Below, in pieces: positions 28,175 through 42,242 of a stretch of 42,242 nt of DNA. This DNA comes from Micromonospora endophytica (GTDB taxonomy: Bacteria > Actinomycetota > Actinomycetes > Mycobacteriales > Micromonosporaceae): the NCBI RefSeq assembly GCF_003236305.1, contig NZ_POTX01000026.1, positions 1 to 42,242 on the forward strand. Reading direction: 5' to 3'. A program made the translations under genes and the position numbers. Each line of letters opens with the position of its first letter. Position 1 is the stretch's first letter. The notes under the pieces are model-generated. The model did no database searches and was not told the origin of the DNA. It saw only the letters and a list, made by a program, of their open reading frames with translations.

Positions 28175-28180
28175 TAGCGT
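28175..28180 (+). promoter_or_regulatory. -10 box TAGCGT of a leaderless gene
   Basis: TAGCGT lies 7 nt before the GTG at 28188 and there is no Shine-Dalgarno. The match decides for 28188 over an in-frame GTG at 28179 that would overlap the box. Confidence 0.5.
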
Positions 28181-28187
28181 GATCGGG

Positions 28188-28952: not shown

Positions 28953-28955
28953 GCT
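28950..28955 (+). promoter_or_regulatory. -10 box TAGGCT of a leaderless gene
   Basis: TAGGCT overlaps the stop codon of the PAP2 gene and lies 6 nt (GCGGGC) before the permease GTG at 28962. TGAACC 16 nt upstream is a possible -35. Confidence 0.5.
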
Positions 28956-28961
28956 GCGGGC

Positions 28962-30194
28962 GTGGATCGACTGGCCCGCCGGTTGGGCGTACGGGATGCG
29001 GTGATCATCGGTCTCGGGTCGATGCTCGGCGCGGGCGTCTTCGTGGTGTTCGCCCCCGCCGCCGCTGCGGCCGGCGGACCCGGGCTGCTGGTGGCGCTCG
29101 GGATCGCAGGTTTCATCGCCTACTGCAACGCCACCAGCTCGGCCCGGCTCGCGGCCCGCTATCCCGAGTCCGGCGGCACCTACGTGTACGGCCGCGAACG
29201 GCTCAACCCGTTCGCCGGCTTCCTCGCCGGCTGGGGCTTCGTGATCGGCAAGACGGCCAGTTGCGCGGCGATGGCGCTGACCATCGGGGCGTACCTCTGG
29301 CCGGGGCAGGCCCGGCTGGTCGCGGTCGCCGCCGTCGTCGCGGTGACCGCGGTGAACCTGCGCGGCGTGACCAAGACCGCGACCACCACCCGGATCCTGG
29401 TGCTGGTCGTGCTGGCGGTGCTGGCCCTGGTCGCGGTGGTCGGCGCGACAGACGTGTCGCTCGGCCGCATCGACCAACCCGGTGGCACCACCCGGGGCAT
29501 CCTCACCGCCGCCGGCCTGCTCTTCTTCGCCTTCGCCGGGTACGCCCGGATCGCCACCCTCGGCGAGGAGGTACGCGACCCGGAGCGGACCATCCCCCGG
29601 GCGGTCCCGCTGGCGCTCGGCCTGGTGCTGGTGATCTACCTGGTGCTGGCCGTGATCGCGCTCGGGGTGCTCGGCCCGACCCGGCTGGCCGCCTCCGCCG
29701 CGCCCCTGGCCGACGTGGTGACCGCCGCCGGGCTACCCGGCCTGGCCTGGGTGGTCCGGGCCGGAGCCACCGTCGCGGTCACCGGCGTGCTGCTCTCCCT
29801 GGTCGCCGGGGTCGGCCGCACCACCCTGGCGATGGCCCGCCGCCGCGACCTGCCCGCCGCGCTGGCCGCCGTGCACCAGGTGCACCAGGTCCCGCACCGC
29901 GCCGAACTGGCGGTCGCCGCCGTGGTGATCGTGGTGGTGGCGGTGGCCGACGTCCGCTCCGCGATCGGCTTCTCCAGCGTCACCGTGCTGGTCTACTACG
30001 CCATCGCCAACGCCGCCGCGCTGACCCTGGGCCGCGAGCCGGCCCGGAAGCTGCCCGTGCAGGCGCTCGCGGTGGCGGGGTTGATCGGCTGCGTCGTGCT
30101 CGCGGTCAGCCTGCCGCTGTCGAGCGTGCTCAGCGGCTTCGGGGTGCTCGCCCTCGGCGCCGCCTGGTACGCCCTACGCCCCGCCCGCCACTGA
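28962..30194 (+). CDS. APC family amino acid permease
   Basis: The 410-residue protein has about twelve TM helices. It opens with the APC signature VIIGLGSMLGAGVFVVF, with the unwound Gly-rich part of TM1, and continues with the family's GGTYVYGRERLNPFAGFLAGW and the cytoplasmic TLGEEVRDPERTIPRAVPLAL loop. It is shorter than many APC members (about 450-500). Substrate specificity cannot be read. The GTG start has no Shine-Dalgarno and is probably leaderless. Confidence 0.88.
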   Translation: MDRLARRLGVRDAVIIGLGSMLGAGVFVVFAPAAAAAGGPGLLVALGIAGFIAYCNATSSARLAARYPESGGTYVYGRERLNPFAGFLAGWGFVIGKTASCAAMALTIGAYLWPGQARLVAVAAVVAVTAVNLRGVTKTATTTRILVLVVLAVLALVAVVGATDVSLGRIDQPGGTTRGILTAAGLLFFAFAGYARIATLGEEVRDPERTIPRAVPLALGLVLVIYLVLAVIALGVLGPTRLAASAAPLADVVTAAGLPGLAWVVRAGATVAVTGVLLSLVAGVGRTTLAMARRRDLPAALAAVHQVHQVPHRAELAVAAVVIVVVAVADVRSAIGFSSVTVLVYYAIANAAALTLGREPARKLPVQALAVAGLIGCVVLAVSLPLSSVLSGFGVLALGAAWYALRPARH

Positions 30195-30255
30195 CGCGAA
30201 TTCACGACATCAATTCGACGAGGCTGACGCTTTCAATCTCGCGCCAACACCCCTG

Positions 30256-30274
30256 GTATAGCGGACGCTATACT
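30256..30274 (+). promoter_or_regulatory. Toxin-antitoxin promoter and operator
   Basis: GTATAGC-GGAC-GCTATAC (30256-30273) is a perfect palindrome. Its right arm supplies the -10 box TATACT (30269-30274), six bases before the toxin ATG. A dimeric HigA-like antitoxin binding here would cover the -10, giving direct autorepression of a leaderless operon. Confidence 0.65.
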
Positions 30275-30280
30275 CCAGGC

Positions 30281-30646
30281 ATGGCTACCGACGAGTGGGA
30301 GATCTACCTCGTCAAAGAGGTCCAGGAGTGGATCGACAGCCTCGATCCACTCACTCACGCCCGCGTCGTGCAAGCCATCGACCTGCTCGCCGAAGCTGGC
30401 CCCGGGCTCGGCCGGCCGCTGGTCGACACGATCCACGGATCCTCGATCGCCAATCTCAAAGAGCTGCGCCCCGGCACCGTACGCATCCTGTTCGCCTTCG
30501 ACCCGTGGCGCTCCAGCATCCTGCTCGTCGCCGGAGACAAGGCCGGACGCTGGCAGCAGTGGTACATCGAAGCGATCCCCCTGGCCGAGCAACGCTACGA
30601 GATCTACCTTAAGGAACGCGCCGAGGAGAAGGGACGACAGCCGTGA
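30281..30646 (+). CDS. HigB/RelE-like toxin (phage Gp49/DUF891 family)
   Basis: The 121-residue protein has the RelE/HigB fold pattern: VKEVQEWIDSLDPLTHARVVQAIDLL, LVDTIHGSSIANLKELRPGTVRILFAFDP, SSILLVAGDKAGRW and a C-terminal helix ending YEIYLKERAEEK. Relatives are mRNA interferases that act at the ribosome. The toxin comes first, as in higBA and DUF891 pairs. The antitoxin gene overlaps it by 4 nt. The ATG at 30281 is leaderless behind TATACT. Confidence 0.87.
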   Translation: MATDEWEIYLVKEVQEWIDSLDPLTHARVVQAIDLLAEAGPGLGRPLVDTIHGSSIANLKELRPGTVRILFAFDPWRSSILLVAGDKAGRWQQWYIEAIPLAEQRYEIYLKERAEEKGRQP

Positions 30647-30960
30647 GCAGCTATGCACGCTGGAGCGACATCCGCGCCGCCCACGTCGAACGCGCCGGCG
30701 GCGAAGAGGCCGTCGAAGCAGGCAAGCAGGAGCTACTCACCAACGTCGTCGGACACCGCCTCGCCGAGGTACGGCGCGCCCGTGGCCTAACCCAACAGCA
30801 GGTCGCCGACCGCATGGGCGTCACCAAAGGCCGCGTCTCCCAAATCGAACAGGGTAAAATCTCCGGCCAAGACATCGTCGCCCGCTACGCCGCCGCCCTC
30901 GGCGGACGCCTCCACCAAGCCATCTACTTCGACGATGGCGACATCGCCGCCATCGCATAG
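30643..30960 (+). CDS. HigA-like XRE family antitoxin
   Basis: The 105-residue protein starts at GTG 30643 within the toxin stop (GTGA). A helix-turn-helix of the XRE type occupies about 38-75 (LAEVRRARGLTQQQVADRMGVTKGRVSQIEQGK), with an N-terminal helix that probably contacts the toxin. It should neutralise the toxin and bind the palindrome at 30256-30273. A strong terminator follows 37 bp downstream. Confidence 0.88.
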   Translation: MSSYARWSDIRAAHVERAGGEEAVEAGKQELLTNVVGHRLAEVRRARGLTQQQVADRMGVTKGRVSQIEQGKISGQDIVARYAAALGGRLHQAIYFDDGDIAAIA

Positions 30961-30997
30961 CTCACCAGCGAGAATGCCCGCAGAGCTACCGAACGAA

Positions 30998-31035
30998 CTG
31001 GCCCTACCACACCGCGAGGGGTGTGGTAGGGCCAG
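30998..31035 (+). terminator. Terminator of the toxin-antitoxin operon
   Basis: A perfect 16-bp stem CTGGCCCTACCACACC (30998-31013, 31020-31035) with a 6-nt loop lies after the antitoxin stop. It may also serve the converging PKD gene about 100 bp away. Confidence 0.8.
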
Positions 31036-31138
31036 GATCGCCACGTCTTTGTCGCGGTCACTCCCCGGCGACAGCCGCAGCAACCCGAACGCTTCTCGTG
31101 CTACCCGGATGCGTCAGCCGCAGCCGCGTGCGGCAGCG

Positions 31139-32044
31139 TCATCGGGTCAGCTTCTGCTTCTTGGCTTTCGCCTCCGACTGGTTGCTGTCCTTGTCGACGG
31201 CGGCGTAGACGACGTACAGCGTGCCCTTCTTGAGGCCCTTGATCTTGACCTTCCAGGTGTTCTTCGCGGTCGGTCGCACCGCGATCGTCTTCACCTTTTT
31301 CATGGCCTGGTCGAACGACTTGGCCTTGATCCATTTCATGCCGGTGTAGTAGTACCAGGCGCTGCCCCGCTGTTCGAGCAGGACGAGACCCACCTCGGCC
31401 GTCCCTCGGCCCCGGTCGCTGACCGTGCCCTTGATCGTGCGCCAGGACGACACGTACGTCGGCTTCTTGGGCTTGGTCAGCCGGACCTGAGGAGCGGATT
31501 CGTCATACTCGGTGGTGATGTCGCCGATGTCCCGACCGTAGGCCTCACCGGCCGCGTTGGTCAGCTTGACGGTCACCGTCCACCGCGTCTGGCTGGTGTA
31601 GTAGTGCTTGACCTGCTTGGTCGTCCGGCCAACCGTGGAGGACTTGCCGTCGCCCCACCACACCCGCACCTTGCTGACATCGCTGGGGATACCCGCAAGG
31701 GTGACGACCGCGGGGTCGCCGATCCACACCTTCTTCTTGACGATCTTGAACGTGCCGGGCATCTTCACCACGGTGACCGTGGCCGTCTTCGCGAAGACCC
31801 CGGACGACGAGTTGCCCGCCCGGTCGGTGACCCGGACGGTCACGGTGTACGAGCCGGGGTTGTAGTACCGGTGCCACTGCGACGTCTCGTCGCCGTTCAG
31901 ATACGAGAACTCCCCGTCGCCCCAGTCGACGTACTGGCGGATGTCCCGCTGCGCCGAGACGTCATCGGAGACCTCCAGCGCGGTCAGGGTGACGCCCTGC
32001 CCGGCCCGAAGGCTGGTGAAATCGAGCCGATAGCGCGAACCCAA
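31139..32044 (-). CDS. PKD-domain protein, probably N-terminally truncated
   Basis: The 301-residue frame starts at TTG 32044 with no signal peptide and a poorly spaced GGAGGGG. It contains at least one clear PKD-like module (QYVDWGDGEFSYLN, HRYYNPGSYTVTVRVTDRAGN) and a second beta module (VWWGDGKSS, HYYTSQTRWTVTVKLTNAAG). A Lys-rich C-terminal domain follows (APQVRLTKPKKPTYVSSWRTIKG). Such domains occur in secreted or surface proteins, so the missing export signal and the start in mid-domain suggest the 5' part was lost at the junction near 32031-32045. Confidence 0.6.
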   Translation of the reverse strand: MGSRYRLDFTSLRAGQGVTLTALEVSDDVSAQRDIRQYVDWGDGEFSYLNGDETSQWHRYYNPGSYTVTVRVTDRAGNSSSGVFAKTATVTVVKMPGTFKIVKKKVWIGDPAVVTLAGIPSDVSKVRVWWGDGKSSTVGRTTKQVKHYYTSQTRWTVTVKLTNAAGEAYGRDIGDITTEYDESAPQVRLTKPKKPTYVSSWRTIKGTVSDRGRGTAEVGLVLLEQRGSAWYYYTGMKWIKAKSFDQAMKKVKTIAVRPTAKNTWKVKIKGLKKGTLYVVYAAVDKDSNQSEAKAKKQKLTR

Positions 32045-32132
32045 CCCCTCCGACCTGGCCGAGCAGGCACAACTACTGCGCGATCGCTACAACTCAGGTC
32101 GGATGCTGGCGGCGGCCGTCCCCCTCCGTTGA
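32034..32132 (+). pseudogene. Remnant of a gene 3' end
   Basis: After an in-frame TAG at 32031-32033, an open frame without a start encodes the tail NPSDLAEQAQLLRDRYNSGR followed by MLAAAVPLR, stopping at 32130-32132. The helical, Arg/Leu/Ala-rich segment looks like the end of a real protein, and it begins exactly where the opposing PKD gene breaks off. The family is not recognised. Confidence 0.35.
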
Positions 32133-32141
32133 ACCAGGAAG

Positions 32142-32190
32142 GGGCGGTGCAACACCCGCGATTCTTGACATGGCCACAGGAGCACCGCCC
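32142..32190 (-). terminator. Hairpin downstream of the 151-residue membrane protein gene
   Basis: GGGCGGTGC (32142-32150) pairs with GCACCGCCC (32182-32190) across a 31-nt loop. It starts 5 bp after the minus-strand stop at 32196 and 10 bp after the plus-strand remnant, so it may have ended both. Confidence 0.45.
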
Positions 32191-32195
32191 GTCCC

Positions 32196-32651
32196 TCAGG
32201 CGAGGTTGGCTACAAGAAGGACGAGCAAGGCGGCGACCGCCACGACGATCGCGATGGCGTTGAGGACCATCACTGTCGGAAGTCCGGTCGACTTCTGCCC
32301 GGGGGCCCCTAGCGACCCCCGGGCAAAGGTCACCGCCGGCGCCATGTAGGCGATGCTGGCGACTTCACCATCACTCACCGAGATGTCCATCTGCGCTCGT
32401 CCAGCTTTCCGGGGCATCACGTACGGCACCCACACCTGCACCCGGTGCCGACCCACCGTGACCGGCACTCGATGTTTGCCCCACCGCGCCACTCCGACGT
32501 CAACGCCATCTACCAACAGGCGCGGCTTCGTAGCCCGATAGACGAACGCCGAAGGTGGGTAGGCGAGGCTGATCGCCAACATTGCCGTCCCAGCTGATTC
32601 ACCGACGCCCGGAGTCTCCTTGCTCTGACGACGATTGCCACGCTTAGGCAA
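32196..32651 (-). CDS. Tail-anchored membrane protein of unknown function
   Basis: The 151-residue protein starts at TTG 32651 behind GGGAGG. A basic N-terminus leads to a beta-rich domain (RLLVDGVDVGVARWGKHRVPVTVGRHRVQVWVPYVMP) and then a single C-terminal TM (about 126-148). I have no database family for it; its beta-rich part resembles a ligand-binding or PEGA-like sandwich facing the cytoplasm. It lies between the truncated PKD gene and the toxin cluster on the same strand. Confidence 0.65.
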   Translation of the reverse strand: MPKRGNRRQSKETPGVGESAGTAMLAISLAYPPSAFVYRATKPRLLVDGVDVGVARWGKHRVPVTVGRHRVQVWVPYVMPRKAGRAQMDISVSDGEVASIAYMAPAVTFARGSLGAPGQKSTGLPTVMVLNAIAIVVAVAALLVLLVANLA

Positions 32652-32781
32652 CCGCGATCACCTCCCAGCCAGTCTTCTCCTGCTGCACACACTTCCCACA
32701 AACACCTAAAAACGTTACACGCGTTGCATCACGGAGCCCACGGTCACCACCGCCGACCCCACGCTCGCCCAGGGTGGGAGT

Positions 32782-33117
32782 TCATCGCCGTTTCGAAGAC
32801 CGCCGCCTGCGCCCCATCTTTATAGATGCAACGAACAAACCGACACACACGGCCGAACACACACCCATGCCGATAGCCGCAGGCTTGTCACTACTCGAGC
32901 CCCCGAAAAGGCTAATAGATGCAATTCCGAAAATGACGGCGAGAATGGGCAACAAGCCGCGCGCCACACCGCGATGGTGGCGCCTATTGTGCTCGGCGTT
33001 AATGCGGCGATCCTCGTCACTGAGTTCCTTTGCCAGCGGCGTTCCGAAGGGCCAGTTGGCCATCCAGATCAGTGTGGTCAACCCTGCAATGACGAATAGC
33101 ACCGTGACGATGACCAT
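32782..33117 (-). CDS. Small three-TM membrane protein of unknown function
   Basis: The 111-residue protein from ATG 33117 has a textbook ribosome-binding site (GGAGGTAAAGC). TM segments lie near 1-20, 53-72 and 78-100, with a charged loop containing HNRRHHRG, and the C-terminus is basic (KMGRRRRSSKRR). Base composition is AT-richer than the core genes. No family recognised; its place in the toxin cluster allows, but does not show, an immunity role. Confidence 0.65.
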   Translation of the reverse strand: MVIVTVLFVIAGLTTLIWMANWPFGTPLAKELSDEDRRINAEHNRRHHRGVARGLLPILAVIFGIASISLFGGSSSDKPAAIGMGVCSAVCVGLFVASIKMGRRRRSSKRR

Positions 33118-33287
33118 GCTTTACCTCCAGAAGCCTGTCAGTCCATCATAGAGCCGACAGCGCTGGTGAATGGATCATGGCTGGCTGCAATCCATCCACC
33201 CACGGTCGCCAGCAACAAGTTGGATATATTTATCCACGGAGCTCATATTCAAAAACTCTTTTCTATATCCGTTACCCAATAGAAAAG

Positions 33288-33887
33288 TTAGACATTCCCT
33301 TTTTTGGCGCGTCGGTTGACCCAGGCGTAATACCTCGGGACACCAACCACGCTTCGAACCAAGTAGAAGCCGACGCCGATGACCAACAGAAAAACGACGG
33401 CAATCCTCACCATGCCCAGCACCGATACAGCGAGAGCCCAAACGCGTGAAATGGGACGGCCGTACCGGCAATCGGTATTCCCCTCCCCGTAGCACACTTC
33501 ACGGAAATCGATCGACTTCCCCCGGTCGGCTGGGGTGACAACCGAGTGACCCACCACTGTCTTCACCTCGCGACCGTCGCGGGTCCGGACCGTCACGGCG
33601 CAGCGCCACCAGTAGCCGAGACCTTCGCCGCTTACCGGACCTACTCGCTGGCAGTCCCGCACCGCAGCCTCGGCCGACTGTTCAGCAGGGGTGGATCTCA
33701 CCGCACCGGTGCCCGGATAGAAACTGGCCACCGTGTCGAACACCAACGTCGAGATGACGACCGCGGCGATGAGGGCGACCGCCGTCGCGAGCTGCGTCAA
33801 GCGGCCCATGATGGGCCCACGCCGTTCGTACGCGGCGATCTGCTCGCGCTGGATCTGCGTCATCCGCTCCGGACCCGCCTCGTTCAC
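33288..33887 (-). CDS. Two-TM protein with cysteine-containing outer domain (DUF6346-like)
   Basis: The 199-residue protein (GTG 33887; ATG 33863 is an alternative behind GGAG) has a TM near 31-55 and another near 160-182. The intervening extracytoplasmic domain has conserved-looking cysteines (RDCQRVGPVSGEGLGYWWRCAV, REVCYGEGNTDCRYG) that could form two disulfides. The pattern resembles actinobacterial DUF6346 proteins; I give that as a resemblance only. It lies downstream of the toxin and immunity genes on the same strand, in AT-richer DNA. Confidence 0.65.
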   Translation of the reverse strand: MNEAGPERMTQIQREQIAAYERRGPIMGRLTQLATAVALIAAVVISTLVFDTVASFYPGTGAVRSTPAEQSAEAAVRDCQRVGPVSGEGLGYWWRCAVTVRTRDGREVKTVVGHSVVTPADRGKSIDFREVCYGEGNTDCRYGRPISRVWALAVSVLGMVRIAVVFLLVIGVGFYLVRSVVGVPRYYAWVNRRAKKGNV

Positions 33888-34005
33888 CTACTCAACCCAC
33901 CTCCAGACACTTCCGGAGGGGTCCGTCGGCTTGCCACGCCATTCGATCCAGAATTCAGCCCGACCTTCGGCAAATAAGCGCAGCTATATGCCCGAGCCGA
34001 CGAAT

Positions 34006-34467
34006 TCAAGCAAGCTCCTGCGAGATGTCGAATTCCACAGGAAACTTGCCTCGAATGATCCCCCAGATGGGATCCTGCTCTACCGATCTGATCCATTCGT
34101 CGAACGACGTCCCGCCGTCACGGAACCACCAGGAGTTGAGACCTCGCAGCGACCGCAGGTCTGGATCAGCTCGATATCTATACTCAAGTTGAACCTGCGA
34201 GTACCCTTCATGCTCGCCGTCGGCGTCGACGATTTCCATTTGACGCACAAAGCCAACTGTGAATGCAGGCTCAGCAAACCAGTTTACTTCGCCATACTGA
34301 AAGAGGAAACCGTCGGAGTCATTACCTTCGGGAACATCGAACGTAATCCGCTCAAAGCCGCGGACCGTCGCGATAAGTTCCTCGACAGTCGGAACCTCTC
34401 GACTCGATCTTGCCTGGTCAGCGATGCCTTGCACCACACCTAGTGCAGAGTCGATCGGTCTGCTCAC
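34006..34467 (-). CDS. Probable immunity protein for the RHS/AHH toxin
   Basis: The 153-residue soluble protein starts at GTG 34467 with GGGAGGTAAGTA upstream. It is acidic, with a helical start and a beta-rich middle (RITFDVPEGNDSDGFLFQYG, FVRQMEIVDADGEHEGYSQV). I do not recognise its family. Its position, 92 bp after the stop of a polymorphic toxin on the same strand, and its small acidic nature are what one expects of the cognate immunity protein that blocks the nuclease in the producing cell. Confidence 0.7.
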   Translation of the reverse strand: MSRPIDSALGVVQGIADQARSSREVPTVEELIATVRGFERITFDVPEGNDSDGFLFQYGEVNWFAEPAFTVGFVRQMEIVDADGEHEGYSQVQLEYRYRADPDLRSLRGLNSWWFRDGGTSFDEWIRSVEQDPIWGIIRGKFPVEFDISQELA

Positions 34468-34559
34468 TACTTACCTCCCTCACTCCGGTTCAACGGCTAA
34501 AGCCTTGCCGCGGTACAGCGGCATCCCTAGGCCGCGCCACGGCCAGGCTACACACTCGG

Positions 34560-36659
34560 CTACGGCCAGTACCCGCCTTGGAGCTGACCCCGTATGTGGT
34601 TCAAGACGTCGCGGGCTTCACCAGCGTTTCGTGCACCGCTCATCATGTCGTTGACGTAAGCATAGTAGTCGTTCGTGTGAATTCGCGAATGAACCGACAT
34701 AGCTCCGGGGTTCGCCGATGCCGATCCCCGCGGCAGGAATACGCCGTTGCTCGCATCGTTGATGCCAATGCCGAATCTATTAAGCTGCGCCCGTGCCGCT
34801 GCGGCCTTCGGAGACGTGCTGGCCACGATGTGGTGCGCGGCCGTTTCGGCAGGCCGCGCAACCCTGGAGGCCTCAAGATTGTCACCAAGAATCTGGGCAT
34901 TGGTGGAGCAATTTGTATTGTGTACGAGGACCGGTGTGTTGCCGGCGAGCACATAGTACGTGTGGATGTCTGCGACGGTGAGGTTGTAGGCGGTGCCCTG
35001 TCGAGTGGTGTTCCAGTCGACTCCCGTGACGGTGAGGGTCGCCCCGTTGGCCGTGTGCAGCAGGTCGCCAGGGTCGAGATCCTGACTGTCCTGCCACTGC
35101 TGGTCGGTCACGTTCCAGAACGGGTGGTCCTCCGTGGTGGTGACTTCCCCGCCACTCACCTTCAGATCGACGAGCTGGTCCTCGTGGACCCACAGGTGGG
35201 TCACCTCACGGGCGCCTTCCTCCCCCGTCTCGGGGTCGGTGGCCAGGACAACGTCGCCGATCTCGACATCCTCGATCGGCTTCTTGCTGCCGTCCGCCAT
35301 CAGGACTTCGGTGTCACCGCTGAAGCTGCGGAAGCCACAGGCACCCCCAACACCACCACCACGGGCCGCCGATCGCGCTCCGGCACCTGCCATACCCACG
35401 GACGTCCGCAGCCCTGCCCCACTGGCAAGACCGAAGGCCCCTGCACCGAGGGCTGGCAGGAGAACCGCACCACCCGCGCCCAGCACACCACCGATGGCCC
35501 CACCGAGGACGGCTTCACCAGCGAGTTGCAAGAAGCTTTCCTCGTCGGCGTCCAGACTGTTGGTGGTCAACGAGGCGACATAGCCGCCGACGAACCCGCC
35601 GATCGCCGCGCAGCCGACAGCACCCACACCGAAGCTGCCAGCCGTGCAGGCACCACCGACGATGACACCAGCGGCGACACCGGCCACCGCACCCACCGCC
35701 CCGGCGTTACGACACCAGAAGCTGGACTGGCACTCCCGCTGCTTGCGTTCCCGCTCGGCGCGTTCGTTGCTGGCCTGCCGGAACGCTTCACGCTGCTGCT
35801 GACAGGCAGAGCCACAAGCCGGAGGAACGTACTTCTTGACGATCTTGATGTCGTTGTTTCCGAAGGGAGTGGTGTCGACGTAGGCACGGTCCCCGGTGTC
35901 CTCGCCGTTCTCCGTGAAGTACAAGCCGGTCGGGTCGGCATTGTCGATCGGGTTGTTCCCACCATACTGATACCCGTTGTACTGAGCGGGACTGTCCGCG
36001 ACCAGCACCGGGTCCACCGAGATGAACCGGCCCAACGTCAGGTCGTACTGCCGGGCACCGACGTTGGTCAGACCGGTGGGATCGATGTCCCCACCAACAA
36101 AGCCCTTGTTGTTCACCCAAACCGGGTTCGCGCCCCGCGGCGCACCGTACGGAGTCTGACGGCGGATCGAAACCGCCTGCGTCCCCGCGTTCACCGCGAC
36201 CTGCTGGGTGCCCTGGTGGTCGTTGAACAGCCAGGTCAGGTCCGTGCTCGCCGAACCGCCCGTGCGGGACGCGCAGACAGTGCCGGCGAAGCTGTAGTAA
36301 CGGGTGCCGGTATTGACGCCGCCTTCCCGGCGAATCTCCTGCCCGGGCAGGTAAAGAGTCGTGCCCCCGCTGTCCCGACGGATGATCCTCGTACCGTCTG
36401 CGTCGTAGATGTTGGTCTCGACGGTCTGCCCGCCAGCCGAGACAGTGGCCAGCTTGCCCTCAGCATCCCAACCCAAGGTCTGACTGTTGGTGCCGCTGCC
36501 ACAGTTGTTCGCGGCAGTGCCGGTCGGCCGGCAGATGGGCTCCTCGGCACCCGCGGCCCCCGCCACCTCACAAGGCTGCGACCTCAGTTGAGATGCCCCG
36601 CTCAGAAGGTGACGAAGCAACCACCCACGACTATCAATCGATAAACGGCTATTTGGCAT
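34560..36659 (-). CDS. Truncated RHS polymorphic toxin with HINT domain and AHH nuclease
   Basis: The 699-residue frame begins inside an RHS repeat region (GWDAEGKLATVS, ETNIYDADGTRIIRRDS) and runs through the RHS core end (GRFISVDPVLV at 211-220, NPIDNADPTGLY at 236-247). A Cys-containing linker and Gly/Ala-rich hydrophobic stretches follow (319-365, 385-440). A pretoxin HINT domain (about 441-583, from CGFRSFSGDTEVL to PVLVHN) comes next, and then a C-terminal AHH nuclease (TAAHHIVA at 606-613, GVFLPR, VHSRIHTNDYYAYVN). HINT should cut the tip free. Full RHS proteins are usually 1500-2500 residues with a secretion signal, so the 5' end is missing. The first ATG, 36659, lacks a ribosome-binding site. 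Confidence 0.85.
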   Translation of the reverse strand: MPNSRLSIDSRGWLLRHLLSGASQLRSQPCEVAGAAGAEEPICRPTGTAANNCGSGTNSQTLGWDAEGKLATVSAGGQTVETNIYDADGTRIIRRDSGGTTLYLPGQEIRREGGVNTGTRYYSFAGTVCASRTGGSASTDLTWLFNDHQGTQQVAVNAGTQAVSIRRQTPYGAPRGANPVWVNNKGFVGGDIDPTGLTNVGARQYDLTLGRFISVDPVLVADSPAQYNGYQYGGNNPIDNADPTGLYFTENGEDTGDRAYVDTTPFGNNDIKIVKKYVPPACGSACQQQREAFRQASNERAERERKQRECQSSFWCRNAGAVGAVAGVAAGVIVGGACTAGSFGVGAVGCAAIGGFVGGYVASLTTNSLDADEESFLQLAGEAVLGGAIGGVLGAGGAVLLPALGAGAFGLASGAGLRTSVGMAGAGARSAARGGGVGGACGFRSFSGDTEVLMADGSKKPIEDVEIGDVVLATDPETGEEGAREVTHLWVHEDQLVDLKVSGGEVTTTEDHPFWNVTDQQWQDSQDLDPGDLLHTANGATLTVTGVDWNTTRQGTAYNLTVADIHTYYVLAGNTPVLVHNTNCSTNAQILGDNLEASRVARPAETAAHHIVASTSPKAAAARAQLNRFGIGINDASNGVFLPRGSASANPGAMSVHSRIHTNDYYAYVNDMMSGARNAGEARDVLNHIRGQLQGGYWP

Positions 36660-36768
36660 CGGCTGGACGCCGCTAGATCACCAGCAAAAATTTGATCATT
36701 TTCGGTATGTGATCTGGGGCGCACGGCCGTCCTCCGGTTTTGTCGCCACTCTCCGACAGGTGATTGGT

Positions 36769-38541
36769 TCAGCTGCGAGGTGTGGGCAGCACCGGTTCAG
36801 GGTCGGGCGGAGGTGGGGCGGTCTCGCGGAGCAGGGCGTTCAGGCCGGCGCGGCGGGCCACCACGGTCAGCCGGTCCCCCGCCATGATCACCAGACGCCG
36901 GTCCGGCGACCAGTCGAGCCGCTGGCCCGGCCGGGCGTGCGCGAGCAGTCGTACGCTGCCCGCCCGGCCCACCGCGCCGAGCGGCTGGCCGTCCAGAGCC
37001 GAGCCGGCCGCCACCGGGATCTCGGTGACCAGCAGGGCGTGCCGGCCGACCGGAATGGTGGCAATCATCGCCCGGTCCAGCAGCGCGGCGGCGAAGGACG
37101 GGGCAGCCAGATAGGAGACGCTGCGCGAGGTGCCGATGCCGAAGGCACGCTGCACCCGTTCGGCGAAGTCACCGTCGAAGAGCCGCAGCACCACCCGGAG
37201 CTGGTCGTTGATGGTGCGGCCGTTGAGCGCCGCCCGCAGGTTCGCCCCGTCGTCGGTGGAGACCACCACCAGCGCCTGGCAGGTGGCCACCGAGGCGGCC
37301 CGCAGCGTCTCCTCCTGCGCGGCGTCTCCCACGACGAGCGGCACACCGAGCCGCCGAGCCAGACCGGCGCCGCGAGCGTCCGGGTTCTTGTCGATCGCCA
37401 CCACCTCGACACCGAAGTCGTTGAGCTGGGCCATCACCCGGGTCCCGATGTTGCCCAACCCCACCACCACGACATGCCCGGAACGCTCCGGCAGGATCCG
37501 CCCGGTGTGCAGGGCCAGCCGGGTGTGCACCACCCCGTCCACCACCACCGCCGTGATCAGCGGGATCAACGCCAACCCGGCCAGGTTGAGCAGCACCTGC
37601 ATGACCTGTTCGGCCGCGCCCTTGGCGATGTCCGGGTCCTGCCCGGTGAGGGTGGTGACCAGGGTGAGGTAGACCGCGTCGGGCAGGCTGACGTGGGCCG
37701 CGCCGGCGTACAGCCCGCCCAGCGTGCCCACCACGGCCAGCAGCAGGAGCACCGCGATGCCGATCTTGCGGGTGGCGAAGCTGCGGACCGCCCGCAGCAG
37801 CGTCGCCGCCGGCCGCCGCCGACGCCGGGCCCGCGCCAACCGGCGCGCGGCCAGCTCGGCACCGGCCGGTCGCCCGCTGGCCTCGGCGAGCACCACGTCG
37901 GCGTCCCGCTCGTCGGCCGGCAACACCAGGTCCTGCTGGGGGTCACGGGTGTCGGCCACGCCGCAGACGATCTCGTTCGGGCGTACGTCGTCGCGACGCG
38001 CCACGTAGAGGGTGCGTCCGCCGTGCCGGAAGTGGGTGGGCGCGACCTCACCGAGCGCGGCGGCCACGAAGGCCGGGGCGGCCATCGAGGTGTCGGAGAG
38101 CACCGCCGAGTCGGGGAAGATCTGCCGCACCCCGTTGGCCAGGCCGGTGTTGAACATCCGCACCACCAGGCGCAACCGGGGCTCGACCTCCTGGGCACAG
38201 AGGGCGGCGTGCATGTTGCCCACGTCGTCCTGATGCAGCAACGCCAGCCCGGCCGCCCCAGCCAGGCCGGCCCGGCGGAAAGCGGCCTCGTCCAGCCGGT
38301 CGGCCCGGATCACCTCGACACCGGGCAGGTCCCGGCCGTCCGGTCCGGGGGAACGCCGACGTTCGGGCACGATCAGCGTGATCCGGAGCCGCCCGGCCTG
38401 CGTCTCACCGCCGCGTAACGCCCGCACCACCCAGTAGGCGAGGGGATCCTGACCGCAGACCACGTAGTGCGCCCGGGTCTCACCGTTGGCCCGCAGCCGG
38501 CGGCCGGCCCGCAGGGCCCGATCGAGCAGCGGCTCCGCCAT
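36769..38541 (-). CDS. Two-TM ion channel with two TrkA-N/RCK-type domains
   Basis: The 590-residue protein from ATG 38541 has an N-terminal Rossmann domain (HYVVCGQDPLA, 25-34, lacking the normal GxGxxG). Two TM helices (about 258-279, 313-337) flank a pore loop, and a second TrkA-N domain has an intact HVVVVGLGNIGTRV (356-369), followed by a TrkA-C-like region. In place of the TVGYG filter the pore loop reads TLVTTLTGQDPD (293-304). This resembles Castor/Pollux-type channels with atypical filters. It is probably a monovalent or divalent cation channel gated by a cytoplasmic ligand. The start is leaderless behind TACCAT. Confidence 0.82.
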   Translation of the reverse strand: MAEPLLDRALRAGRRLRANGETRAHYVVCGQDPLAYWVVRALRGGETQAGRLRITLIVPERRRSPGPDGRDLPGVEVIRADRLDEAAFRRAGLAGAAGLALLHQDDVGNMHAALCAQEVEPRLRLVVRMFNTGLANGVRQIFPDSAVLSDTSMAAPAFVAAALGEVAPTHFRHGGRTLYVARRDDVRPNEIVCGVADTRDPQQDLVLPADERDADVVLAEASGRPAGAELAARRLARARRRRRPAATLLRAVRSFATRKIGIAVLLLLAVVGTLGGLYAGAAHVSLPDAVYLTLVTTLTGQDPDIAKGAAEQVMQVLLNLAGLALIPLITAVVVDGVVHTRLALHTGRILPERSGHVVVVGLGNIGTRVMAQLNDFGVEVVAIDKNPDARGAGLARRLGVPLVVGDAAQEETLRAASVATCQALVVVSTDDGANLRAALNGRTINDQLRVVLRLFDGDFAERVQRAFGIGTSRSVSYLAAPSFAAALLDRAMIATIPVGRHALLVTEIPVAAGSALDGQPLGAVGRAGSVRLLAHARPGQRLDWSPDRRLVIMAGDRLTVVARRAGLNALLRETAPPPPDPEPVLPTPRS

Positions 38542-38547
38542 GCCCGC

Positions 38548-38553
38548 ATGGTA
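38548..38553 (-). promoter_or_regulatory. -10 box TACCAT of a leaderless gene
   Basis: On the minus strand TACCAT is followed by GCGGGC and then the ATG at 38541. The same GCGGGC spacer follows the -10 of the permease at 28962. No Shine-Dalgarno is present. Confidence 0.5.
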
Positions 38554-38642
38554 ATCACCTGGTCGCACCCGCGCAGCCCGCCGATGATCTTGACTTTGAC
38601 TGGTCCGGCATGGGTACGCCGAGGACGGGTACGGCACCGCCC

Positions 38643-39110
38643 ATGCAGACGTTCCTGCCGTACCCGGACTTCCTGGCCAGCGCCCGGGCGCTGGACCAAC
38701 GACGGCTGGGCAAACAGCGGGTCGAGGCGATCCAGGTGCTGCGCGGGCTGACCCGCCCCGGGTACGGCTGGCGCCACCACCCGGCGGTCAAAATGTGGAC
38801 CGGGTACGAGGAGGCGCTGACCCGCTACGGGCTCGACATCTGCGCGGTCTGGTGCGCGACGGGCCGCGCCGACACCTGCGCGGCGACCCTGACCGCCGAC
38901 CTCGCCGCCGCCCGCGGCATCGAGCAGGTCCGCTCCCAGCAGGAGTTGGCCGCAGCCGGGGAACTGCCGCCCTGGCTGGGCCGCACCGACCTGCACCTGA
39001 GCCACCGCTCCGCGCTGCTGCGCAAGGACCCCGCCCACTACCGCCCGATCTTCGGCCCCGACCTCCCCGACAACCTCGACTACGTCTGGCCCCCCTCCGA
39101 CCGCGCGTAA
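38643..39110 (+). CDS. MSMEG_6728 family protein
   Basis: The 155-residue protein from ATG 38643 begins MQTFLPYPDFLASARALDQ and continues RRLGKQRVEAIQVLRGL, the signature of this actinobacterial family; an in-frame ATG at 38610 would add eleven residues of little character. The middle (GWRHHPAVKMWTGYEEALTRYG) and end (LHLSHRSALLRKDPAHYRPIFG) also fit. The family is distantly related to pyrimidine-dimer glycosylase-type proteins, so a nucleic-acid role is possible but unproven. Its TAA stop is the first part of an intergenic repeat element. Confidence 0.85.
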   Translation: MQTFLPYPDFLASARALDQRRLGKQRVEAIQVLRGLTRPGYGWRHHPAVKMWTGYEEALTRYGLDICAVWCATGRADTCAATLTADLAAARGIEQVRSQQELAAAGELPPWLGRTDLHLSHRSALLRKDPAHYRPIFGPDLPDNLDYVWPPSDRA

Positions 39111-39162
39111 GGAGGGTCCCCCTATTAACGCCTCGTGCATAGCAGGGGTCCCCTATTAACAC
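39109..39162. repeat. Intergenic GGGGCCCC/GTTAAC repeat, element C1
   Basis: Two forward units: AAGGAGGGTCCCCCTATTAA with CGCCTCGTGCATA, then GCAGGGGTCCCCTATTAACA. The element overlaps the stop codon of the preceding gene and faces an inverted copy 45 bp away. Confidence 0.75.
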
Positions 39163-39175
39163 GCGCCCGCCGAGT

Positions 39176-39210
39176 GCTAGATCAAGCGTTCCAGCGCTAG
39201 ATCAAGTGTT
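39176..39210. repeat. 15-bp direct repeat between C1 and C2
   Basis: GCTAGATCAAGCGTT (39176-39190) and GCTAGATCAAGTGTT (39196-39210) form a 20-bp-period direct repeat at the centre of the inverted repeat pair. Confidence 0.6.
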
Positions 39211-39272
39211 AACAGGGGGCCCCTCCTCTACCGCAGGCGTTAATAGGGGGACCCTCCTTACACCTCAGGCAG
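39207..39272. repeat. Intergenic GGGGCCCC/GTTAAC repeat, element C2 (inverted)
   Basis: Two reverse units: GTTAACAGGGGGCCCCTCCT, an 11-bp spacer, GTTAATAGGGGGACCCTCCT. It is followed by CACCTCAGGC, which also follows element B, and ends just before the oxidoreductase gene. Confidence 0.75.
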
Positions 39273-39281
39273 ACTGGGGGG

Positions 39282-40811
39282 ATGGCGTTGTCGCAGGTGG
39301 TGGGTCGGCTGATCGGCGTACGGCCGCATCGGGTGGAGGAGCCCGGCGGCGGTGGCGCTGCCCGGGTGCCGCAGCCGGTGACGGCGGTGGTGGTCGGCGG
39401 CGGGATCGCCGGCATGTCGGCGGCGGTGGTCCTCGCCGAGCGGGGTGTCGAGGTGACCGTGCTGGAGGCCGCGCCGGCCCTGGGTGGCCGGTTGGGTGCC
39501 TGGCCGGAGAGGCTCGCCGACGGCAGCAGCCAGATCAACGAGCACGGCTTCCACGCGTTCTTCCGGCAGTACTACAACTGGCGCGGCATCCTGCGCCGGA
39601 TCGACCCGGCGCTGCGTTTCCTCCGCCCGGTGCCGGGTTATCCGGTGCTCAGCGCGCAGTGGCCGGCCGAGGAGTTCGGCCGGTTGCCGCCGGCTCCACC
39701 GGCGAACCTGCTCACCCTGCTGGCCCGTAGCCCCAGCCTGCGCCTGCGGGACCTGCGGGGGATGGACCGGGACGCCGCCTTGCCGCTGCTGGCCTACCAC
39801 CCGGTTCGCACGTACGCCGAGTTCGACGGCGCGACCGCCGATGACCTGCTCACCTCGTTGCGGCTGCCGGACCGGGCCCGGGCGATGCTCTTCGAGGTCT
39901 TCTCCCACTCGTTCTTCAATCACGAGGCGGAGATGTCGGCCGCCGAGATGATCGCCCAGTTCCACTTCTATCTGCTCGGCAATCCCGAGGGGCTGGCTTT
40001 CGACTGCCCGGTCGAGGACTACGCCACGGCCATCTGGGGGCCGCTGACCCGGCACGTCGAGCGGCACGGTGGCCGGGTGGTGACCGGGGTCGCGGCGACC
40101 GCGCTGCACCGGGCAGCCGCCGGGTGGCGGGTGACGACCGCCGAGCGGGCGTACGACGTCGGGCACGTCGTGCTCGCGGTCGACCCGCCGGCCCTCGCCG
40201 CGCTGGTCGCGGCCTCACCCGGGCTGGCCGACGCCGCACCGGGCCTGGTGGCGGCGATGCCCGGGTTCGGGCGGCCCGGCCCGCCGTACGCGGTGGCCCG
40301 CTACTGGTGTGACGGGGACGTCGGCCCTGAGCGGGCGGTCTTCAGTGGGGTGTCCCGCCAGCCCACACTGGACTCGGTGACGTTGTACCACCGGTTGGAG
40401 GACGAGTCCCGGCGTTGGGCGGAGCGCACCGGCGGTTCGATCATCGAGCTGCACGCGTACGCCTGTGAGCCGGGCGTGCCCGCGACGGAGCTGGCCGAGC
40501 GGATGCGCGCCGAGCTGACCGTGCTCTGGCCGGAGGCGGCCCGGCTGCGCGTGCGTGAGCTGCGGGCCCGGGTGGAGGCCAAGGCGCCCGCTTTCACGCC
40601 GGGCAGTCACGCCTGGCGACCCGGGGTTCGCACCGAGGCCGAGGGGCTTTATCTGGCCGGCGACGGCATCCGCACCGACTTTCCCAGCGCCTTGATGGAA
40701 CGGGCGGCGGCCACCGGCATCCTCGCGGCCAACCACATCCTGCGGGCGGCGGGCGCGGCCACCGAGCCGCTGCGTTCGATCCGGCCGCGCGGCCTGCTCG
40801 CGGCGCGCTGA
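39282..40811 (+). CDS. FAD-dependent oxidoreductase, phytoene desaturase/amine oxidase type
   Basis: The 509-residue protein has a Rossmann FAD site VVVGGGIAGMSAA (37-49) with E62 and the GGR motif (68-70), a central substrate region, and the C-terminal FAD segment LYLAGDGIRTDFPSALMERA. It belongs to the carotenoid-desaturase-like flavoenzymes, close to the oxidoreductases found with isorenieratene and related terpenoid genes. No carotenoid gene is beside it, so the substrate is open. ATG 39282 is preceded by CAGACT plus six G residues, either a leaderless start or an unusually close G-rich site; the 30-residue N-terminal extension before the Rossmann fold leaves room for a later start. Confidence 0.83.
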   Translation: MALSQVVGRLIGVRPHRVEEPGGGGAARVPQPVTAVVVGGGIAGMSAAVVLAERGVEVTVLEAAPALGGRLGAWPERLADGSSQINEHGFHAFFRQYYNWRGILRRIDPALRFLRPVPGYPVLSAQWPAEEFGRLPPAPPANLLTLLARSPSLRLRDLRGMDRDAALPLLAYHPVRTYAEFDGATADDLLTSLRLPDRARAMLFEVFSHSFFNHEAEMSAAEMIAQFHFYLLGNPEGLAFDCPVEDYATAIWGPLTRHVERHGGRVVTGVAATALHRAAAGWRVTTAERAYDVGHVVLAVDPPALAALVAASPGLADAAPGLVAAMPGFGRPGPPYAVARYWCDGDVGPERAVFSGVSRQPTLDSVTLYHRLEDESRRWAERTGGSIIELHAYACEPGVPATELAERMRAELTVLWPEAARLRVRELRARVEAKAPAFTPGSHAWRPGVRTEAEGLYLAGDGIRTDFPSALMERAAATGILAANHILRAAGAATEPLRSIRPRGLLAAR

Positions 40812-40833
40812 CCACCGCCGCTGACCTGGGCGA

Positions 40834-40870
40834 ATCAGGCGGGCCAACCCGGCAGATCAGGCGGGCCAAC
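40834..40870. repeat. 15-bp direct repeat downstream of the oxidoreductase
   Basis: ATCAGGCGGGCCAAC occurs at 40834-40848 and 40856-40870 (22-bp period), and imperfect GGGCCAGGYGGGTC units continue to about 40920. It fills the gap between two converging genes; no hairpin is evident. Confidence 0.5.
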
Positions 40871-40922
40871 TCGAGCCGGGCCAGGTGGGTCGAACCGGAG
40901 CGGGCCAGGCGGGTCAGGTGGG

Positions 40923-41546
40923 TCAGTCGGGTGGGGCGGTGAGGCCGCGCAGGAGCAGGGCCAGGCCGCCGTCGAACTCGGCGTCCGGATCGATGTGCCG
41001 CGCGGTGCGGGCCGTGTCGGCGAGGTGCGGGTACGCCTGCGGCGCAAGCTCGGCCAGTGCCGCGGTGCCGGCCCCGGCGAGCGGGCCGAGATGTTCCAAC
41101 TGGATCGCGCCGAGGAGGTAGCCGAGCAGGGCGCGCAGGGCGAGCACCCGCCGCTCGCCGGTGAGTCCGGCCTCGGTGAGCAGCCCGAGCACGGTCTCCG
41201 TCCAGCGCAGCACGGCAGCCGACCGGTGCCGGTGCACGGGCACCAGGGGCGCGACCGCCGGGTGGGCGGCGACGGCGGCGCGCATCCGCCGCAGCAGGAG
41301 CGTGACCCGGGCGGCCCAGGGCAGCTTGGGGTCGGGCGGGCTGACGTCGATCCCGTCGAGCACCCGCTCCACGACCAGCCGTTCCAGCTCGCCGCGATCG
41401 TCGATGTAGCGGTAGAGGGCCATCGCGCTCATCGCCAGCTCGGCGGCGACCGCCCGCATGGTGAACCCGGTGAGGCCGTCGCGGTCGATCACGGTCAACG
41501 CCGCCGAGGCGATCCGGTCGGGGGTCAGCGAGCGGGGCCGAGGCAT
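40923..41546 (-). CDS. TetR family transcriptional regulator
   Basis: The 207-residue protein starts at ATG 41546 (MPRPRSLTPDRIASAA). The N-terminal helix-turn-helix (about 10-55) reads GLTGFTMRAVAAELAMSAMALYRYIDDRGEL, and the C-terminal ligand domain resembles TetR-C (LLRRMRAAVAAHPAVAPLV). A TAGGGT -10 at 41557-41562 would give a leader of only a few bases. It is divergent from the peroxiredoxin-like gene, and the palindrome between them is its likely binding site. The inducer is unknown. Confidence 0.88.
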   Translation of the reverse strand: MPRPRSLTPDRIASAALTVIDRDGLTGFTMRAVAAELAMSAMALYRYIDDRGELERLVVERVLDGIDVSPPDPKLPWAARVTLLLRRMRAAVAAHPAVAPLVPVHRHRSAAVLRWTETVLGLLTEAGLTGERRVLALRALLGYLLGAIQLEHLGPLAGAGTAALAELAPQAYPHLADTARTARHIDPDAEFDGGLALLLRGLTAPPD

Positions 41547-41568
41547 GTCGCTTGACACCCTACTGCAC

Positions 41569-41599
41569 CCTCGTAGGTATACATCGTACGCCTACGAGG
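41569..41599. promoter_or_regulatory. TetR operator in a divergent promoter
   Basis: CCTCGTAGG (41569-41577) and CCTACGAGG (41591-41599) form a perfect inverted repeat that extends imperfectly inward with GTAC-like bases. It lies between TTGACA (41552-41557, a -35 for the rightward gene) and the rightward ribosome-binding site, which overlaps the right arm. Confidence 0.7.
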
Positions 41600-41607
41600 A
41601 GAGCCCG

Positions 41608-42180: not shown

Positions 42181-42185
42181 CGCGA

Positions 42186-42211
42186 CGCTGCGCCTCAGAC
42201 GCGGCGCAGCG
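42186..42211. terminator. Terminator after the peroxiredoxin-like gene
   Basis: CGCTGCGCC (42186-42194) pairs with GGCGCAGCG (42203-42211) around an 8-nt loop, 5 bp after the stop codon. A gene may converge from the right. Confidence 0.6.
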
Positions 42212-42212
42212 G

Positions 42213-42242
42213 CTAGGGGGTGGGCGGGGTCCAGGAGAAGCG
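42213..42242 (-). CDS. Possible 3' end of a converging gene (partial)
   Basis: On the minus strand the window edge reads RFSWTPPTP followed by TAG at 42213-42215, directly beyond a terminator-like hairpin. Nine residues are too few to identify anything. Confidence 0.25.
   Translation of the reverse strand, partial: RFSWTPPTP

What the first reader, a model, noticed from the sequence alone, without database searches (positions are those of the whole stretch)
34006..36659. Orphan RHS tip: HINT plus AHH nuclease with a probable unknown immunity family
The reading frame keeps the RHS core end, a HINT autoprotease and an AHH nuclease, but has lost the N-terminal export and repeat region. The gene 92 bp downstream encodes a small acidic protein of no family I recognise. 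Known: such displaced C-terminal cassettes act as reservoirs for recombination into full RHS genes. Inference: toxin-immunity pair with a new immunity family.
Basis: partly seen in the sequence, partly recalled or inferred. Interest (0 to 1): 0.6.

Follow-up and report, generated by a model that had tools for sequence, protein, structure and literature searches.

The report
Truncated toxin gene beside immunity gene
A soil bacterium carries the poisonous tip of an antibacterial weapon whose delivery part has been deleted on the spot, followed by a small acidic protein that is very probably its matching antidote and belongs to a protein family nobody has named yet.

Summary
ORF 34560-36659(-) carries an RHS core, a HINT domain and an AHH nuclease, with a 153-aa acidic protein gene 92 bp downstream that has no significant match in Pfam, NCBIfam, PADLOC or PDB sequences.

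The pairing is well supported. In a genome-collection scan, all 13 returned loci with tips at least 60% identical carry this family right behind the tip, in several actinobacterial families and on different carriers (RHS and short HINT proteins). Tip and partner share one ~1.07-kb DNA block with Streptomyces curacoi, as if moved together.

The "displaced cassette" reading does not fit this copy. The locus is syntenic with sister species; relative to one (G704) about 3.7 kb is missing in place between the upstream Trk-type gene and the RHS core. Start and export region are gone, and the first ~29 codons are former intergenic DNA. Another sister species (G710) is truncated independently. Tips of sister genes differ from just behind HINT, so the tip was exchanged earlier.

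Most likely the toxin is now undelivered and poorly translated, while the immunity gene keeps a strong Shine-Dalgarno sequence. The immunity family is new but of a known kind. Most interesting is its sister clade in Streptomycetaceae without the toxin beside it.

The parts
34560..36659 (-). 699-aa ORF: 5'-truncated RHS gene with HINT and AHH nuclease tip
36574..36659 (-). first ~29 codons of the ORF: former intergenic DNA downstream of the Trk-type gene, aligned to DNA before the RHS gene in sister genome G704; the ATG has no clear Shine-Dalgarno (-4.7 kcal/mol)
36552..36573 (-). deletion junction: alignment to G704 stops at 36574 and resumes at 36551, about 3.7 kb further along in G704
35922..36155 (-). 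RHS-associated core (TIGR03696, residues 169-246)
34917..35303 (-). PT-HINT domain (residues 453-581), ends with VLVHN; 93% DNA identity to G704 stops at 34918
34605..34883 (-). AHH nuclease domain (residues 593-685), motif residues AHH 608-610, N638, H657, H661, Y665/666 present
33923..34988 (-). exchange unit: end of HINT + tip + spacer + immunity gene, 79% DNA identity in one block to Streptomyces curacoi (L038)
34501..34549 (-). degenerate stem-loop in the 92-bp spacer (z of the spacer -0.24), aligned to strong hairpins behind the toxin stop in L038, L040 and L051 (z -5.8, -6.0, -3.4)
34006..34467 (-). 153-aa acidic protein, predicted immunity protein of an unnamed family; GTG start with strong Shine-Dalgarno (-13.5 kcal/mol)
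36769..38637 (-). Trk-type gene (TrkA_N / TrkA_C), fixed left border of the variable toxin site
28962..30194 (+). permease-like gene (named by eye, no family search run), right border of the variable site; 20-750 bp from the Trk gene in 5 of 13 relatives inspected

Best explanation
The ORF is the C-terminal remainder of a formerly longer, secreted RHS polymorphic toxin at a variable RHS site between a Trk-type gene and a permease-like gene. An in-place loss of about 3.7 kb (shown by synteny) removed its start, export signal and most of the RHS shell, and fused former intergenic DNA to the RHS core. What remains is an intact HINT domain and an AHH-type HNH nuclease tip, followed by the gene of its cognate immunity protein, which belongs to an unnamed actinobacterial family. 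In intact relatives the likely scheme is: export and display by RHS, release of the tip at the HINT-end boundary, DNA (or RNA) cleavage in a neighbour, and protection of the producer by the acidic 153-aa protein binding the basic tip (inferred). In this strain the toxin can no longer be exported and is probably barely translated, whereas the immunity gene keeps a strong ribosome-binding site. Its present use, if any, is protection against neighbours carrying the intact toxin (inferred).
For: Domains and motif residues are intact. The immunity family lies directly behind the tip in 15 of 32 tip loci, 13 of 13 at 60% identity or more, with 12-96 bp gaps. In 300 genomes of the own family, 5 have both, always adjacent; 7 have the tip only and 5 the 153-aa family only (Fisher p 9e-6). 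Carriers differ: RHS, RHS with a TcdB middle region, and short HINT proteins. Tip, spacer and immunity gene form one 79%-identical DNA block with S. curacoi, while RHS core, linker and HINT are 93% identical to G704. In-place loss: the flank to 36574 and the RHS part from 36551 both align to G704, which has 3.7 kb between. G710 is truncated at another point, and G728 has a 2243-aa RHS frame behind its Trk gene, with a 1321-aa frame between them. Of the missing stretch, 3356 of about 3714 bases were searched in the own genome: the long matches are 66% and 73% identical. pI is 4.3 against 9.0. Shine-Dalgarno -13.5 against -4.7 kcal/mol. Window against G704 dN/dS 0.11; window-specific changes 37 synonymous and 8 non-synonymous. 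A parallel is in print: orphan cdiA-CT fragments mostly lack translation starts while orphan cdiI is expressed (PMC3150448, passages).
Against: No function was tested. Two fairly close tips (Paractinoplanes L048/L052, 55 and 54% identical) have no member of the family beside them or anywhere in the corresponding genomes G176/G220; three other loci at 52-56% also lack it. At least 22 of 26 places of the family in sampled Streptomycetaceae have no AHH tip within 1.5 kb, so the family is not tied to this toxin alone. The low non-synonymous count can mean either a very recent deletion or continued constraint, which would fit an intracellular role. Internal in-frame GTG codons in the toxin ORF have good Shine-Dalgarno energies (best -11.1 at residue 325), so an internal product is possible. 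The deletion is read from a 561-contig draft without reads.
Confidence: 0.66

Rival explanations
1. Displaced C-terminal cassette kept as a recombination reservoir: the tip plus immunity gene was set aside when the main RHS gene took another tip.
For: Such cassettes of this tip seem to exist: L051, L053 and L044 have tip frames of 133-136 aa (the one in L051 lacks the first ~48 tip residues) behind a longer gene that looks like RHS with another tip (by eye, no family search; L044 also holds runs of N). G194 keeps a 33-codon tip fragment and an internally shortened immunity gene. G704 and G710 carry HINT-end fragments with other tips downstream of the RHS gene (by eye).
Against: This ORF sits at the place of the main gene, next to the Trk gene, and keeps ~540 codons of RHS core, linker and HINT colinear with the RHS genes of G704 and G710. 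The own-genome search gave no second RHS/HINT match on this 42-kb contig.
Confidence: 0.12
2. Intracellular toxin-antitoxin module: an internal promoter and start in the truncated ORF make a cytoplasmic AHH nuclease held by the 153-aa protein, as reported for rhs elements of Salmonella Typhimurium.
For: The frame is intact with few non-synonymous changes; internal GTG codons have SD energies down to -11.1 kcal/mol; precedent PMC7043789 (abstract and section list). A Gp49/HTH toxin-antitoxin-like pair lies in the same variable region.
Against: No sigma-70-like promoter in 33800-36900 by simple pattern, which does not cover other promoter types. The two genes do not overlap, and 5 of 11 relatives folded have a strong hairpin between them.
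Confidence: 0.13
3. Dead remnant: both genes are decaying without function.
For: The 5' part is lost; the spacer hairpin is degenerate (z -0.24) where L038, L040 and L051 have z -3.4 to -6.0, though L042, on a long RHS frame, lacks it too (z +2.3); sister genes are broken independently.
Against: No stop or frameshift in 699 + 153 codons; catalytic residues and the immunity gene's SD are intact; 37:8 synonymous to non-synonymous changes on the window side.
Confidence: 0.22
4. The 153-aa protein is not an immunity protein but an accessory or unrelated passenger gene.
For: A Streptomycetaceae clade of 24 members labelled without an AHH tip beside them (for one, L033, too little upstream DNA is held).
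Against: Adjacency across carriers and families, acidic pI in 16 of 16 members of A3, and one shared DNA block with the tip.
Confidence: 0.1

Closest known systems
Polymorphic RHS toxins with HINT and Tox-AHH tips (Zhang et al. 2012, PMC3482391)
   Same: RHS core, HINT, AHH nuclease tip at the C-terminus, small gene behind; tips exchanged together with the immunity gene
   Different: export region deleted; immunity gene matches none of the partners given there for Tox-AHH (Imm-PA2201, Imm-ank, Imm11, Imm20, Imm23, Imm24, Imm43, SuFu; passages read) as far as Pfam scans of 16 members reach
Orphan cdiA-CT/cdiI and rhs-CT/rhsI modules (Poole et al. 2011, PMC3150448, passages)
   Same: C-terminal toxin fragment without a clear translation start, followed by an intact immunity gene
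   Different: here the fragment is the truncated main gene in its own place, not an extra module behind a main gene
Salmonella rhs toxin-antitoxin use (PMC7043789, abstract)
   Same: RHS tip and partner that could act inside the cell
   Different: no evidence of internal expression here; no adjacent full-length rhs gene found
RHS genes behind the Trk-type gene in sister genomes (G704, G710, G728)
   Same: same site, same RHS core and linker (95, 90 and 75% identical)
   Different: other tips; no member of the 153-aa family in these three genomes; G728 keeps a 2243-aa frame

Membership tests
Tox-AHH nuclease (PF14412) | Pfam match above the curated cut-off | tested here: met
   63.1 bits against 22.3
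Tox-AHH nuclease (PF14412) | [AG]HH, N, H, H, Y residues (Zhang 2012, passages) | tested here: met
   all present in the window; H29, H30, N58, H77, H81, Y85 of the tip invariant in 22 of 22 aligned tips (the A before HH is P in 4 of 22)
Tox-AHH nuclease (PF14412) | HNH/Endo VII fold | tested here: inconclusive
   model pLDDT 94.2; no Foldseek match E<=0.001; the two best of four VIA rows, VcaM4I restriction endonuclease and CBASS Cap5, at only Z 3.0, rmsd 4.8/4.3, 70/82 aligned
Tox-AHH nuclease (PF14412) | nuclease activity | not testable with these tools
   needs protein
RHS polymorphic toxin | RHS-associated core | tested here: met
   TIGR03696 56.1 bits against 32.5
RHS polymorphic toxin | N-terminal export signal and RHS shell | tested here: not met
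   RHS homology begins ~205 residues before the core end; start and N-terminal part missing relative to G704
RHS polymorphic toxin | HINT domain with HN end | tested here: met
   PF07591 70.2 bits; VLVHN at 577-581, Ser445 at the HINT start
Immunity protein of a polymorphic toxin | small single-domain gene directly behind the toxin, recurring with the toxin family | tested here: met
   15 of 32 tip loci, 13 of 13 at >=60% tip identity; 20 of 22 linked rows fall in one group of the tree (96/78, with 3 solo rows)
Immunity protein of a polymorphic toxin | neutralises the cognate toxin | not testable with these tools
   needs co-expression
Known immunity families in Pfam (Imm series, SUKH, SuFu) | match above cut-off by any of 16 members | tested here: not met
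   no immunity family listed for any of 16 members up to E 10; best hit E 0.0042, RHA1_ro05818_N in one member; a sequence test only
Displaced orphan CT cassette | extra module behind a main gene with another tip | tested here: not met
   ORF lies in the place of the main gene next to the Trk gene

The most novel reading that the evidence does not exclude
The 153-aa family is a new immunity family with a second life. A Streptomycetaceae clade (24 of 53 rows, support 99/96), on chromosomes and plasmids, has no AHH toxin beside it and would be a stand-alone shield against neighbours' AHH toxins. In parallel, RHS genes behind the Trk gene are repeatedly stripped of their delivery part while tip frames stay intact, so disarmed immunity carriers are selected.
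Probability: 0.25. Interest if true: 0.55.

Novelty: new member of a known kind. Interest (0 to 1): 0.38.

Why it matters
It gives a clear, testable actinobacterial toxin-immunity pair with an unnamed immunity family, a confident structure model for which no close solved relative was found, and natural examples of the same pair on long, short and truncated carriers. It also shows by synteny how one 'orphan' toxin tip arose: by deletion in place rather than by displacement. The clade without the toxin makes it possible to ask whether bacteria keep immunity genes as stand-alone protection.

Tried and rejected
Fold of the 153-aa protein: the model has pLDDT 93.5 and pTM 0.88. There is no PDB match at E<=0.001 and no viral match at E<=0.001 (best 4.9e-3). 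The second look with VIA gives TRPML channel domains at Z 4.5, rmsd 6.5, 107 aligned, which is too weak to mean kinship. A sequence profile against PDB chains gives a best E of 0.047. So no fold family is named, and none is excluded.

Misassembly: most of the missing RHS stretch (3356 bases of G704 DNA) was searched in the own genome. The long matches are 66% and 73% identical, both to the C24 paralogue; two short matches of 36-38 bases are 92% and 89% identical. Nothing suggests that it lies on another contig, but there are no reads to check.

Conserved hairpin as a shared recombination site: the spacer fold is strong (z -3.4 or lower) in 5 of 12 spacers folded, -1.9 to -2.4 in 3, and weak in 4, the window and L042 among them. 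Score-12 hairpins lie in 6 of 15 gaps; none was found in the window's gap at score 11. Four linked loci with short gaps (L044, L045, L049, L067) were not folded. Hairpin sequences differ between groups, so a terminator or processing stem behind the toxin is more likely than a recombination site. L044 holds runs of N, and most of its 19 hairpin calls look like an artefact of them.

Promoters: none by the simple pattern. Rfam: no hit in 28000-42242. Phage records: no match of the 153-aa protein; viral contigs: one, of which only 157 bases upstream are held, so its 'solo' label is untested.

Literature: searches for AHH with polymorphic toxin, immunity protein and nuclease (20 of 29 listed), Rhs, orphan, immunity, Streptomyces and polymorphic toxin (20 of 109 listed), Rhs with Micromonospora (4 of 4), AHH, immunity, Streptomyces and HINT domain (10 of 14) and orphan immunity in Streptomyces (2 of 2) showed no title or abstract that describes this pair. 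Only open-licence PubMed Central papers are held, and I read passages of two papers (PMC3482391, PMC3150448) and the abstracts of two (PMC7043789, PMC13392607; the last is not used).

Rows dropped: L185 and L179 (duplicates of L037 and L034) and rows under 100 residues before the tree. The 13 relatives whose surroundings I took were the 12 best-matching genomes by Trk protein that I picked from the top of the list, plus G728, added because an RHS match lay near its Trk gene; 120 of 121 genomes had a match. Of 9 plasmid records I opened 8 (H3 not). In some searches only some candidates per genome were scored, so counts are lower bounds.
Full report
WHAT IS THERE. The ORF 34560-36659(-) of 699 aa and the 153-aa gene 34006-34467(-) are as described. 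The ORF holds the RHS-associated core (residues 169-246), PT-HINT (453-581) and AHH (593-685). The residues given in print for Tox-AHH ([AG]HH, N, H, H, Y; PMC3482391, passages) are all present; the two H of HH, N, H, H and Y are invariant in 22 of 22 aligned tips. The HINT domain starts with Ser445 (by eye, where L038 has Cys) and ends in VLVHN. The tip is basic (pI 9.0) and the 153-aa protein acidic (pI 4.3). The tip model is confident (pLDDT 94.2), but structure searches found no clear relative.

THE PARTNER GENE. The 153-aa protein has no significant match in Pfam, NCBIfam, PADLOC or solved structures. Sixteen members scanned against Pfam up to E 10 gave only single hits, the best E 0.0042. 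On plasmids its relatives are annotated 'hypothetical protein' in 8 of 9 records; the ninth has no annotation. In a sample of 300 genomes of the own family, 10 have the gene and 12 the tip. Five have both (G000, G149, G194, G231, G297), always adjacent; 7 have the tip only and 5 the gene only (Fisher p 9e-6). In 396 genomes of the phylum, 5 have the family. A scan of the genome collection (84,980 species) with the tip alignment returned 32 loci, and 15 of them have the gene directly behind the tip on the same strand. By tip identity these are 13 of 13 at 60% or more, 2 of 7 at 50-59% and 0 of 12 below 50%. The misses at 50-59% are two Paractinoplanes loci (L048, L052), whose genomes hold no member at all, and L054, L056 and L061 from metagenome assemblies. 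The gap between toxin stop and partner start is 12-96 bp. The pair is carried by RHS proteins (L042, L045, L049) and by short HINT proteins without RHS hits at E 1e-5 (L039, 651 aa; Streptomyces anulatus plasmid, 729 aa, annotated 'polymorphic toxin-type HINT domain-containing protein'). This is the pattern of a cognate immunity gene; neutralisation itself is not shown.

A MOVING CASSETTE. With S. curacoi (L038) the window shares one block of 79% DNA identity from 34988 to 33923: the end of HINT, the tip, the spacer, the immunity gene and about 80 bp more. With L051 the shared block is 34805-33912. With the sister genome G704 the identity is 93% through the RHS core, linker and HINT and stops at 34918, at the end of HINT. 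So tip plus immunity gene look exchanged as a unit at the HINT end. G+C at third positions is 0.753 in RHS core and linker, 0.84 in HINT, 0.675 in the tip and 0.588 in the immunity gene, against 0.90 in the neighbouring Trk gene. In relatives the cassette also seems truly displaced: L051, L053 and L044 have tip frames of only 133-136 aa behind a longer RHS-like gene (by eye) with another tip. G194 keeps 33 codons of the tip and an internally shortened immunity gene behind another HINT-type toxin (by eye).

HOW THIS COPY LOST ITS 5' PART. The Trk-type gene upstream is found in 120 of 121 genomes of the genus sample, own genome included. I took the surroundings of 13 of these places. In 5 of 13 the Trk gene is followed within 20-750 bp by the permease-like gene that in the window lies beyond the toxin region. 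In 3 of 13 (G704, G710, G728) a homologue of the window RHS gene lies between; in 4 of 13 a HINT-bearing gene of about 3600 aa lies behind the Trk gene (one, L138, checked as RHS by Pfam; L136 is cut off by the fetched stretch at 3530 aa; the permease gene is not within these four stretches); and in 1 of 13 other, uncharacterised genes lie between. The site is therefore variable and often holds RHS genes. In G704 the Trk gene and its flank align to the window as far as 36574, and the RHS core resumes at window 36551, while G704 has 3.7 kb between these points. The window thus lost the RHS start, export region and most of the shell in place, and about 29 codons of the ORF are former intergenic DNA. 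G710 shows a different 5' deletion, and G704 itself an internal loss of about 1.8 kb relative to the 2219-aa frame of G261. G728 keeps a frame of 2243 aa behind the Trk gene, with a 1321-aa frame between. The long matches of the missing stretch (3356 bases searched) in the own genome are only 66% and 73% identical. The sister genomes G704, G710 and G728 have no member of the immunity family and no match of the tip in the fetched stretches.

IS IT ALIVE? Over 540 codons dN/dS between window and G704 is 0.11. Changes seen only in the window (G704 equal to G710) are 37 synonymous and 8 non-synonymous; those only in G704 are 24 and 8. There is no stop inside either reading frame. So the deletion is either recent or the rest stayed constrained; this cannot be separated here. 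The ORF's ATG has a poor Shine-Dalgarno match (-4.7 kcal/mol) and the immunity gene's GTG a strong one (-13.5). Internal GTG codons with good matches exist (-11.1 at residue 325). In print, orphan cdiA-CT fragments mostly lack translation starts while orphan cdiI genes appear able to be expressed, and one was shown to protect (PMC3150448, passages). Rhs tips can also act as internal toxin-antitoxin pairs in Salmonella (PMC7043789, abstract).

THE SPACER HAIRPIN. In relatives a strong stem-loop lies directly behind the toxin stop: z -5.8 (L038), -6.0 (L040), -6.2 (L050), -4.6 (L047) and -3.4 (L051), that is 5 of 12 spacers folded, the window's included. The window's is degenerate (z -0.24), and L042 folds worse than its shuffles (z +2.3). 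A likely reading is a stem that ends or processes the toxin message before the immunity gene (inference).

THE SOLO CLADE. In 297 Streptomycetaceae genomes the family occurs at 26 places in 24 genomes (12 candidates per genome scored). An AHH tip is within 1.5 kb in 3 of 26; at one further place (L033) too little upstream DNA is held to tell. One of the three (L163) has an immunity gene identical to that of L039. In a tree of 53 members, 24 solo members form one clade (99/96), and 20 of 22 linked members fall with 3 solo ones in another group (96/78); L043 and L045, both linked, are placed outside both. Seven of seven other plasmid copies opened have no tip within about 1.5 kb on the same strand; two of the seven have an annotated RHS gene 5-6 kb upstream. 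These may be stand-alone immunity genes, or partners of another toxin, or something else.

VERDICT. A toxin-immunity cassette with an unnamed immunity family, on a toxin gene that was disarmed by deletion in place. The family is new; the kind of system is known. Function is inferred throughout.

Noticed in passing
window 28962-38637; L130-L132, L136, L138-L146: The DNA behind a Trk-type gene is a variable site that often holds RHS toxins in this genus: empty (permease-like gene next) in 5 of 13 relatives inspected, RHS or HINT genes in 7, other content in 1.
   Followed up: partly
L130 (G704), second copy of the Trk 3' end: G704 carries a 371-bp copy of the end of the Trk gene, 98.9% identical, about 10.8 kb downstream of the first, as if DNA between had been inserted by recombination at the Trk end.
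   Followed up: no
window 30281-30960: A Gp49-like (DUF891) toxin gene and an HTH antitoxin-like gene lie in the same region of lower G+C; a homologous region (84.7% DNA identity) lies downstream of the RHS gene in G704.
   Followed up: partly
window 33288-33887: DUF6346 protein gene downstream of the immunity gene; a 40% identical relative lies behind the 2243-aa RHS frame of G728 at the same site.
   Followed up: no
L162-L186, L153-L159: Solo clade of the 153-aa family in Streptomycetaceae chromosomes and plasmids without an AHH tip beside it.
   Followed up: partly
window 34501-34549; L038, L040, L047, L050, L051: Strong stem-loop directly behind the AHH toxin stop codon and before the immunity gene in relatives, degenerate in the window.
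   Followed up: partly
L026, L027, L031: More distant AHH tips in genomes of the same family (G075, G031, G109) are followed by other small genes of 182-195 aa, unrelated to the 153-aa family by eye.
   Followed up: no
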